A stretch of 14,032 nt of DNA, taken from NCBI GenBank assembly GCA_009782865.1, contig WRIF01000008.1, forward strand, positions 1-14,032, written 5' to 3'. The stretch comes from Promicromonosporaceae bacterium. GTDB lineage: Bacteria > Actinomycetota > Actinomycetes > Actinomycetales > Cellulomonadaceae. The notes beneath the pieces are model-generated. The model made no database searches and was not told where the DNA came from. It worked only from the letters and a program-made list of their open reading frames with translations. A program made the position numbers and the translations under genes. This document shows, in pieces, positions 4,448-7,400 of the stretch (positions are counted from its first letter, which is position 1; the number at the start of each line of letters is the position of its first letter).

Positions 4448-7400
4448 TCAGATTTCGTCGATGCCGGAGACGGAGCCCGGGCGGCCAGCCAGGTTGATGC
4501 CGAGGTCCTCTGCGACGCGGTATGCGTCCTCATCGGACTCCTTCATCTCGATCGGCGTACCGTCGGCGCTCAGCACCTCGACGTTCAAGCACAGCGACTG
4601 CATCTCCTTGAGCAGCACCTTGAACGATTCGGGAATGCCGGAGTCCGGGATGTTCTCGCCCTTGACGATCGCCTCGTAGACCTTCACGCGGCCCGGAACG
4701 TCGTCCGACTTGATGGTCAACAGCTCCTGCAGCGTGTAGGCGGCGCCGTACGCCTCCAGGGCCCACACCTCCATCTCCCCGAAGCGCTGGCCACCGAACT
4801 GGGCCTTACCGCCGAGCGGCTGCTGGGTGATCATCGAGTAGGGGCCGGTGGAGCGGGCGTGAATCTTGTCGTCCACCAGGTGGTGCAGCTTCAAGATGTA
4901 CATGTAGCCGACGGCCACCGCGTCCGGGAACGGCTCGCCGGAGCGGCCGTCGAACAGGCGGGCCTTGCCGTCCGGGCCAACCATGCGACCCTCCGGGCCG
5001 ACCATGGCGGCGTCATACGGCGTGTGCTCGGACTCCGCCTTGGCGAACTTGTCGCGCTCGGGGCGGGAGGTGGTGCCGAGCAGGCCGCGCAGCGCGGGCT
5101 CGGACAAGCCGTCGAACACCGGGGTGGCAACCGGGTTGAAGGGCTCCGACTTGGCGGCGAAGGCCGGCAGGGAGTCCTTCCAGGTGGGGTCGGCCAGGTT
5201 GGCCGCCGGCTGCTCGGGGTGGTCCACATCCCAGCCCCGGCTGGCAACCCAGCCAAGGTGGGTCTCCAGCACCTGGCCGACGTTCATTCGACCCGGAACA
5301 CCCAGGGGGTTCAGGATCACGTCGACCGGGGTGCCGTCGGGCAGGAACGGCATGTCCTCCTGCGGCAGGATCTTGGAGATCACGCCCTTGTTGCCGTGGC
5401 GGCCGGCCAGCTTGTCACCGACCGTGATCTTGCGGCGCTGGGCGATGTACACGCGGACCAGCTGGTTGACCCCGGCGGGCAGCTCGTCGCCGTCCTCCCG
5501 GTTGAACTCGCGGACCGCGATGACCGTGCCCTGCTCGCCGTGCGGCACCTTCAGGGAGGTGTCGCGAACCTCGCGGGACTTCTCCCCGAAGATGGCGCGC
5601 AGCAGGCGCTCCTCCGGGGTCAGCTCGGTCTCACCCTTCGGGGTGACCTTGCCGACCAGCACGTCGCCGGCGCCGACCTCGGCACCGATGCGGATGATGC
5701 CGCGCTCGTCCAGGTCGGCAAGCGCCTCTTCGGCCACGTTCGGGATGTCGCGGGTGATCTCTTCCGGGCCCAGCTTGGTGTCGCGGGCGTCGACCTCGTG
5801 CTCCTCGATGTGAATCGAGGACAAGCCGTCGTCCTCCACCAGGCGCTGCGACAAGATGATCGCGTCCTCGTAGTTGTGGCCCTCCCAGCTCATGAACGCC
5901 ACGAGCAGGTTGCGGCCGAGCGAGAGCTCGCCCTCATCGGTGGCGGGGCCGTCAGCGATCACGGTGGAGTGAGCGGCGTCGGGGCCGACCTCCACCCGGT
6001 CGCCCTCGGAGACGATCACCCGCTGGTTGTAGGAGGTGCCCTGGTTGGAGCGGACAAACTTCGCGATCCGGTAGCTGGTCTCGGTGCCGTCGTCGTTGGC
6101 GACCACCACCAGATCGGCGGAGACCTCCTTGACCACACCGGACTTGGTGGCGGTGACCACGTCTCCGGCGTCGATGGCAGCGCGGCGCTCCATGCCGGTG
6201 CCGACCAGCGGCATCTCGGCGCGGACCAGCGGCACGGCCTGACGCTGCATGTTCGCACCCATCAGGGCGCGGTTGGCGTCGTCGTGCTCCAGGAAGGGAA
6301 TCAGCGCGGTGGCCACGGAGACCATCTGCCGCGGGGAGACGTCGATGTACTCGACCTCGGTGGGCGGCACATCGGCGGTCTCGCCGCCGGAGACACGCAC
6401 CAGCACCCGGTCGGCGAGCAGCTTGCCCTTCACGTCGATGGGGGTGTTGGCCTGGGCGATGATCGAGCGGTCCTCGTCGTCGGCAGTGAGGTAGACGATC
6501 TCGTCCTGCACCACGCCGTCGATCACCCGGCGGTACGGCGTCTCGATGAAGCCGAACGGGTTGATGCGGCCGAAGGAGGCCAGCGAGCCGATGAGGCCGA
6601 TGTTCGGGCCTTCCGGGGTCTCGATGGGGCACATGCGGCCGTAGTGGCTGGAGTGGACGTCGCGGACCTCCATGCCGGCGCGGTCACGCGAAAGGCCACC
6701 GGGGCCGAGCGCGTTGAGGCGCCGCTTGTGCGTCAGGCCGGCCAGCGGGTTGTTCTGGTCCATAAACTGCGAGAGCTGCGAGGTGCCGAAGAACTCGCGG
6801 ATGCTCGCCACCACGGGGCGAATGTTGATTAGGGTCTGCGGCGTGATGGCCTCGACGTCTTGCGTGGTCATGCGCTCGCGGACCACCCGCTCCATGCGGG
6901 ACAGGCCGGTGCGGACCTGGTTCTGGATCAACTCGCCAACCGCGCGGATGCGGCGGTTGCCGAAGTGGTCGATGTCGTCGGTCTCGACGCGCACGTCGAT
7001 GACCTCGCCATCGCGGCTAACCCCGGCGAACGTGGCCACGTCGCCGTGCAGCGCGGCCAGGTACTTGATGGTCGCCACCACGTCCTCGAGGCGCAGCACC
7101 GACTCGGACAGCTCCCGCTTGAGCCCCAGCTTCTTGGCGATCTTGTGCGAGCCGACCTTGGCCAGGTCGTAGCGCTTGGGGTTGAAGTAGAAGTTCTGCA
7201 GCAGCTGGCGACCCGCGTCGATGGTGGGCGGCTCGCCCGGGCGGATCTTGCGGTACATGTCGATCAGGGCCTCGTCCTGCGTCTGCGGGACGTCCTTCTC
7301 CAGGGTCTCCAGCACCACCGGGTAGCTGGCGAACTCCTTGCGGATCTGCTGTTCGGTCATGCCGAGCGCCTTGAGCAGCACCGTGACCGACTGCTTGCGC

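What the first reader, a model, noticed from the sequence alone, without database searches (positions are those of the whole stretch)
6713..6715. RpoB carries Asn at the Ser531-equivalent position: predicted natural rifampicin resistance
In the rifampicin pocket the segment reads THKRRLNALGPGG, where E. coli has Ser531 and M. tuberculosis has Ser450 in place of Asn444. Ser531 substitutions are the classic resistance mutations, and Asn at this position is the documented basis of natural rifampicin resistance in spirochaetes (Borrelia, Treponema). All other key pocket residues look sensitive-type and the gene appears to be the only housekeeping rpoB at its normal locus. This could be a lineage-fixed intrinsic resistance or an isolate-level mutation.
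Basis: partly seen in the sequence, partly recalled or inferred. Interest (0 to 1): 0.7.

Follow-up and report, generated by a model that had tools for sequence, protein, structure and literature searches.

The report
Natural Asn531 rifamycin-pocket variant of RpoB
This actinobacterium carries, in its ordinary RNA polymerase, an amino acid that is suspected of blunting the antibiotic rifampicin; the same swap has arisen again and again in its relatives, mostly in genomes that lack HelR, the protein that strips the drug off the polymerase.

Summary
Codon 6713-6715 (minus strand) is AAC, Asn at the E. coli 531 position of the only rpoB found. It is no isolate mutation: 10 of 10 genomes of its genus group that yielded rpoB (Xylanimonas; own included) have AAC. 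Nor is it rare: of 256 actinomycete RpoBs, 45 have Asn and 211 Ser, nothing else, with at least 21 to 24 changes on the tree. Two more residues change with it (about 453 Leu/Ile, 587 Val/Ile; 0 of 1000 permutations reach both). Asn531 and HelR, which displaces rifamycin from RNAP, avoid each other: HelR is in 2 of 44 Asn against 79 of 178 Ser genomes; in 21 independent pairs it goes opposite in 10.6 and the same way in 0.0 (median p 0.001). Cas1 and rifampin monooxygenase show no such pattern. Best reading: a recurrent target-site rifamycin tolerance allele that takes the place of HelR. The level of resistance is unknown (no MIC seen); S. coelicolor, with Asn here, still yields rifampicin-resistant mutants, so probably low to moderate. 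Asn531 as a natural resistance correlate is known (recalled); I saw the HelR exclusion in no paper searched.

The parts
6713..6715 (-). AAC codon, Asn at E. coli position 531 (Asn444 of the gene call)
4448..8044 (-). rpoB, housekeeping RNA polymerase beta subunit (TTG start inferred from the 1198-aa P0001)
6947..6949 (-). Ile codon of GNRR[I/L]R, about E. coli 453; co-varies with Asn531 (of 13 differing pairs, Ile on the Asn side in 11, Leu on the Ser side in 12)
6545..6547 (-). Ile codon of GF[I/V]ETPYR, about E. coli 587; co-varies with Asn531 (10 of 10 differing pairs)
380..4333 (-). rpoC, next gene of the operon
8428..9446 (-). rplL and rplJ, upstream of rpoB: normal housekeeping locus

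Best explanation
Asn531 is a lineage-fixed state of the housekeeping RpoB of Xylanimonas-type bacteria. It most likely weakens rifamycin binding by replacing the serine that lines the drug pocket (inferred), giving low to moderate intrinsic tolerance (inferred). It goes together with Ile at about 453 and 587, which change with it in many lineages (shown as co-variation). It is one of two alternative rifamycin defences at the polymerase: a Ser531 enzyme protected by HelR, or an Asn531 enzyme without HelR (exclusion shown, causation inferred).
For: AAC in 10 of 10 genus-group genomes with rpoB; Asn in 69 of the 120 best-listed proteins, own included, among them Xylanimonas, Isoptericola, Promicromonospora, Krasilnikoviella and Rarobacter. 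At least 24 changes on a 256-row tree, 21 forced by starred branches; 25 and 22 with the trait's segment left out. Only Ser or Asn at the site. HelR in 2 of 44 Asn and 79 of 178 Ser genomes, Fisher 1.2e-7; 21 independent pairs, 0.0 same way, 10.6 opposite, median p 0.00098; 22 pairs, 0.0 and 12.0, median p 0.00049 on the second tree (one repeated genome still in). In 80 genomes of my choice, Rox p 0.22 and Cas1 p 0.20, pairs not significant. Co-variation of 453 and 587: 0 of 1000 orientation shuffles reach both. The HelD loop tip of M. smegmatis lies within 3.5 A of the rifampicin site (PMC10719064, passages), so both act on one pocket. Natural S450N is reported in M. branderi, effect untested there (PMC13246000, section 8).
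Against: No MIC or in vitro inhibition data seen for any Xylanimonas. S. coelicolor RNAP has Asn here (7vpd_C; organism recalled), yet rpoB mutants resistant to rifampicin are selected in it (PMC3536979, passages). Nonomuraea RpoB(R) lost its resistance in S. lividans when N426 was reverted, S431N presumably still there (PMC5431353; PMC3536979). 99 of 178 Ser genomes lack HelR too, and two Asn genomes (G209, G196) have it. Nonomuraea, with its resistant second RpoB, keeps a HelR-group gene (PMC8655204, passages). X. oleitrophica, so named by NCBI, has Ser (P0029, G027) and no HelR over the cut-off. S450N is said to be absent from M. tuberculosis clinical isolates (PMC13246000). The exclusion is a correlation.
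Confidence: 0.66

Rival explanations
1. Asn531 is a near-neutral alternative to Ser that toggles freely; its effect on rifamycins is negligible.
For: Many independent changes within genera; S. coelicolor still yields resistant mutants (PMC3536979, passages); 99 of 178 Ser genomes do without HelR.
Against: A neutral site would be expected to show other residues and no tie to HelR. Here only Ser and Asn occur in 256 rows, 210 of 211 Ser codons are TCN, so most changes need two or three base changes, and HelR avoids Asn while Cas1 does not.
Confidence: 0.17
2. Asn531 changes polymerase kinetics, with 453 and 587, and HelR, a polymerase recycling motor, is not needed or not tolerated by such an enzyme; rifamycin is incidental.
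For: Co-variation with 453 and 587; HelD-type proteins also free stalled polymerase (PMC10719064, passages).
Against: Asn genomes keep other HelD-type proteins below the HelR cut-off, e.g. 460.7 bits in the own genome, 444.2 in G010, 480.1 in G199. Arr, which only modifies the drug, leans the same way (2 of 44 against 41 of 178), though not significantly in pairs. Rox, also a drug-modifying enzyme, does not.
Confidence: 0.13
3. Asn531 spreads by recombination of a short rpoB tract rather than arising anew.
For: One of 12 close pairs (Streptomyces HmicA12) has raised silent divergence in the 453-587 segment, p 0.0006; two more are at p 0.05 to 0.08. Asn rows are slightly closer than their Ser sisters to other Asn lineages at silent sites of this segment in 8 of 12 pairs.
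Against: Eleven of 12 pairs are not significant; the differences in distance are at most about 0.05, and the upstream part shows 5 of 12.
Confidence: 0.04

Closest known systems
Asn531 RpoB of spirochaetes (Borrelia, Treponema), natural rifampicin resistance (recalled, from no call)
   Same: Asn at the same position, fixed in a lineage, housekeeping copy
   Different: Different phylum; here resistance is not measured and the state toggles among close relatives
Mycobacterium branderi natural S450N (PMC13246000, section 8 and passages read)
   Same: Same residue, natural, actinobacterial
   Different: One species reported; effect not tested there
Nonomuraea rpoB(R) / Nocardia rpoB2 duplicated polymerases (PMC5431353, PMC3536979, PMC10719064, passages)
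   Same: RpoB(R) carries S431N, the same substitution
   Different: Those are second copies, and in RpoB(R) the resistance needs H426N; here one copy is seen, with His kept
HelR (NF041254), rifamycin displacement from RNAP (PMC10719064, PMC8655204, passages)
   Same: Defence at the same pocket
   Different: A separate protein; not over the cut-off in this draft genome or ten congeners, and rare with Asn531
Clinical Ser531/Ser450 substitutions (Leu, Trp, Phe; recalled)
   Same: Same residue
   Different: None of those residues occurs in the 256 natural sequences

Membership tests
Natural Asn531-type RNA polymerase | Asn at E. coli position 531 of the housekeeping beta subunit | tested here: met
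Natural Asn531-type RNA polymerase | Fixed in the lineage | tested here: met
   10 of 10 genus-group genomes with rpoB, own included; NCBI-named X. oleitrophica, outside that group, has Ser
Natural Asn531-type RNA polymerase | Only rpoB copy | tested here: inconclusive
   One match in the own genome (77.6% complete) and in each of nine congeners, none in G003
Natural Asn531-type RNA polymerase | Organism or purified enzyme is rifampicin-insensitive | not testable with these tools
   No MIC seen
Duplicated rpoB(R)/rpoB2 system | Second rpoB paralogue | tested here: not met
   own genome incomplete
Duplicated rpoB(R)/rpoB2 system | Asn at position 526 | tested here: not met
   His526
Isolate-level resistance mutation | Absent from relatives | tested here: not met
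HelR-protected polymerase | HelR over the NF041254 cut-off in the genome | tested here: not met
   Best hit 460.7 bits against 750; own genome incomplete, and ten congeners (three of them under 80% complete) have none either

The most novel reading that the evidence does not exclude
Actinomycetes switch between two mutually exclusive rifamycin defences at the polymerase itself: a Ser531 enzyme cleared by HelR, or a co-evolved Ile453-Asn531-Ile587 pocket that either needs no HelR or cannot be cleared by it. The state of one residue would then predict the absence of a whole resistance gene.
Probability: 0.5. Interest if true: 0.75.

Novelty: new member of a known kind. Interest (0 to 1): 0.55.

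Why it matters
If Asn531 is a cheap natural resistance allele, about one in six actinomycete RpoBs sampled carries rifamycin tolerance in the housekeeping polymerase, outside catalogues of resistance genes. The exclusion with HelR gives a testable rule linking a target residue to a target-protection protein. The co-varying residues point to how bacteria may carry a Ser531 substitution without a fitness cost.

Tried and rejected
Isolate mutation or sequencing error: rejected. Second, resistant rpoB copy: none seen (the 11 named Asn genomes also have one match each). Arr as a partner: the table leans (2 of 44 against 41 of 178, p 0.005) but pairs are not significant; one weak Arr hit in a Ser genome (G224) was left out of my count. 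Rifampin monooxygenase: 8 of 37 Asn and 15 of 43 Ser genomes of a set of 80 chosen by me, no exclusion. Tract recombination: not general. MICs in Xylanimonas, Isoptericola or Promicromonospora: one search listed 25 of 27 papers; passages of four read, no rifampicin value for these genera seen; PMC5603540 tested one Promicromonospora among 81 isolates, but per-isolate results were not in the passages and supplements were not open to me. PMC8857223 'N531' is a strain name. The first motif in a script matched nothing and was replaced.

Full report
What was claimed and what is there. The codon at 6713-6715 on the minus strand is AAC and lies in SQFMDQNNPLAGLTHKRRLNALGPGG. The gene is a normal rpoB followed by rpoC and preceded by rplL and rplJ. 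The window is a whole contig of a 2.0 Mb draft genome, 77.6% complete, with one rpoB match.

Which organism. The window is therefore from a relative of Xylanimonas. X. oleitrophica (contig 797,522, G027) falls outside this genus group in the tool's grouping and has Ser.

Fixed, and common. Ten of ten genus-group genomes that gave rpoB, own included, have AAC; G003 gave none. In the relatives set, 14 of 57 have Asn and 43 Ser, own included. Of 80 named loci, 11 have Asn: Promicromonospora, Georgenia, Janibacter, five Streptomyces, Actinomadura, Catenulispora and Pseudonocardia. Of the 120 proteins listed as nearest to the window's RpoB, own included, 69 have Asn. Of the 120 listed as nearest to a Streptomyces flaveolus RpoB, 6 have Asn. 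In the class-wide draw 139 of 148 genomes had an rpoB match; of 128 loci read, 126 gave the motif, 20 with Asn (one is a second place in G199) and 106 with Ser, two gave none; G037 and G052 were already in the relatives set, and fragments that miss the site were not fetched.

Only two letters. In 256 RpoBs kept for the tree, position 531 is Ser in 211 and Asn in 45; three of the rows repeat another. Seven further rows were dropped: one without the motif and six too short, these six with Ser. All 45 Asn codons are AAC; Ser codons are TCN in 210 and AGC in one. Most Ser to Asn changes thus need two or three base changes.

How often. On the tree, Asn needs at least 24 changes, 21 forced by starred branches. 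With the trait-bearing segment left out of the tree it is 25 and 22. The trees are FastTree trees of RpoB itself, and changes cannot be split into gains and losses.

Co-varying residues. I took 24 path-disjoint pairs of near Asn and Ser rows. Apart from 531, two columns differ in a consistent direction: GNRR[I/L]R (about E. coli 453; 13 pairs differ, Leu on the Ser side in 12 and never on the Asn side, Ile on the Asn side in 11) and GF[I/V]ETPYR (about 587; Ile on the Asn side and Val on the Ser side in 10 of 10). Shuffling the orientation of pairs 1000 times gave a maximum of 12 or more in 0.3% and both columns together never. Ile-Asn-Ile is found in 33 of 45 Asn rows; Leu-Ser-Val is the commonest Ser form, 92 rows. 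In 11 of 12 close pairs silent differences are not significantly raised in this segment, so recombination does not explain it in general. No distances between these residues were measured.

HelR. HelR (NF041254, cut-off 750 bits) is over the cut-off in 16 of 59 relatives, 50 of 148 class genomes and 27 of 50 named genomes (50 of the 80 named loci were searched, all 11 Asn ones among them, none of these 11 with HelR). G022, a Ser genome, has HelR in two pieces and was counted as without. Joined with rpoB state, HelR is in 2 of 44 Asn and 79 of 178 Ser genomes, Fisher 1.2e-7 (223 rows with one repeat). Leaving out genomes that I listed as under 90% complete it is 2 of 41 and 79 of 171; completeness of the named genomes is not given. 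In 21 independent pairs HelR goes opposite to Asn in 10.6 and the same way in 0.0, median p 0.00098, range 0.00006 to 0.03 over pairings; 12.0 and 0.0 of 22 on the second tree. Close pairs, Asn without and Ser with HelR: G145/G130, G141/G108, G154/G105, Streptomyces NP-1717/AcH 505, S. sparsogenes/S. morookaense, Georgenia satyanarayanai/EYE_87. Against it: G209 and G196 have both; 99 of the Ser genomes have no HelR; in G005/G027 and several far pairs neither has it.

Controls. In a set of 80 genomes that I chose (37 Asn, 43 mostly near Ser genomes), HelR is in 2 of 37 and 30 of 43, rifampin monooxygenase in 8 of 37 and 15 of 43, Arr in 2 of 37 and 8 of 43, Cas1 in 12 of 37 and 8 of 43. Only HelR departs. 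Four families were looked at in all, so the HelR p should be read with a factor of four. Arr leans the same way overall (2 of 44, 41 of 178) but not in pairs. Five of the eight rows with natural Asn526 lie in genomes searched for HelR (G039, G044, G055, G186, G212), and none is over the cut-off; three were not searched.

Hints from print. In the HelR group of Larsen et al. (PMC8655204, legend of Figure A8) S. venezuelae is listed and none of the four HelD proteins of S. coelicolor. The solved RNAP 7vpd_C has Asn and 8dy7_C Ser; I recall these as S. coelicolor and S. venezuelae. The same paper lists Nonomuraea in the HelR group and remarks on this despite its resistant second RpoB, which runs against a strict exclusion, though Nonomuraea also has a sensitive copy.

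Mechanism. The tip of the HelD loop lies within 3.5 A of the rifampicin site and deforms it (PMC10719064, passages). Asn531 sits in that site. The two look like alternatives: if the pocket already binds the drug poorly, HelR is redundant, or the altered pocket cannot be cleared by it. I cannot tell these apart. The size of the effect is open: S. coelicolor and S. lividans serve for selection of rifampicin-resistant rpoB mutants (PMC3536979, passages), and RpoB(R) with N426 reverted lost its resistance in S. lividans although S431N presumably stayed (PMC5431353; PMC3536979). That host may itself have Asn (not checked), so the result limits the level rather than excluding an effect. The review also cites RbpA as affecting rifampicin resistance, with S. 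coelicolor in the title cited (reference and passage).

Known and new. Asn531 as a correlate of natural resistance in spirochaetes is recalled, not looked up. S450N in M. branderi is in print, with its effect left open and S450N said not to be found in M. tuberculosis clinical isolates (PMC13246000, section 8). I saw no paper on Asn531 across actinomycetes or on its exclusion with HelR in the listings; these cover open-licence papers only, and three key papers that I asked for were not held.

Noticed in passing
window 9686-11137 (-): A MATE-family transporter gene (PF01554) lies between rplA and rplJ. tblastn finds none in the loci of 80 named relatives (44 hold both genes) nor in nine stretches upstream of rpoB in congeners and near relatives (four hold both genes).
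   Followed up: partly
L012, L072, L081, L120 (G044), L137 (G055), L138 (G039), L214 (G186), L228 (G212): Eight of 256 actinomycete RpoB rows have a natural Asn at position 526, another classic resistance site; the five whose genomes were searched have no HelR over the cut-off.
   Followed up: partly
L269 (G095:C87:1945-5511): A second, divergent rpoB-like gene (63% identity, one stop inside) in one draft genome, beside a normal one.
   Followed up: no
L208, L209 (G199:C1): rpoB matches near both ends of one 7.7 Mb contig, probably an unresolved overlap of a circular chromosome.
   Followed up: no
L121 (G043): The only Ser531 codon of the AGC type among 211, one base from the Asn codon AAC.
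   Followed up: no
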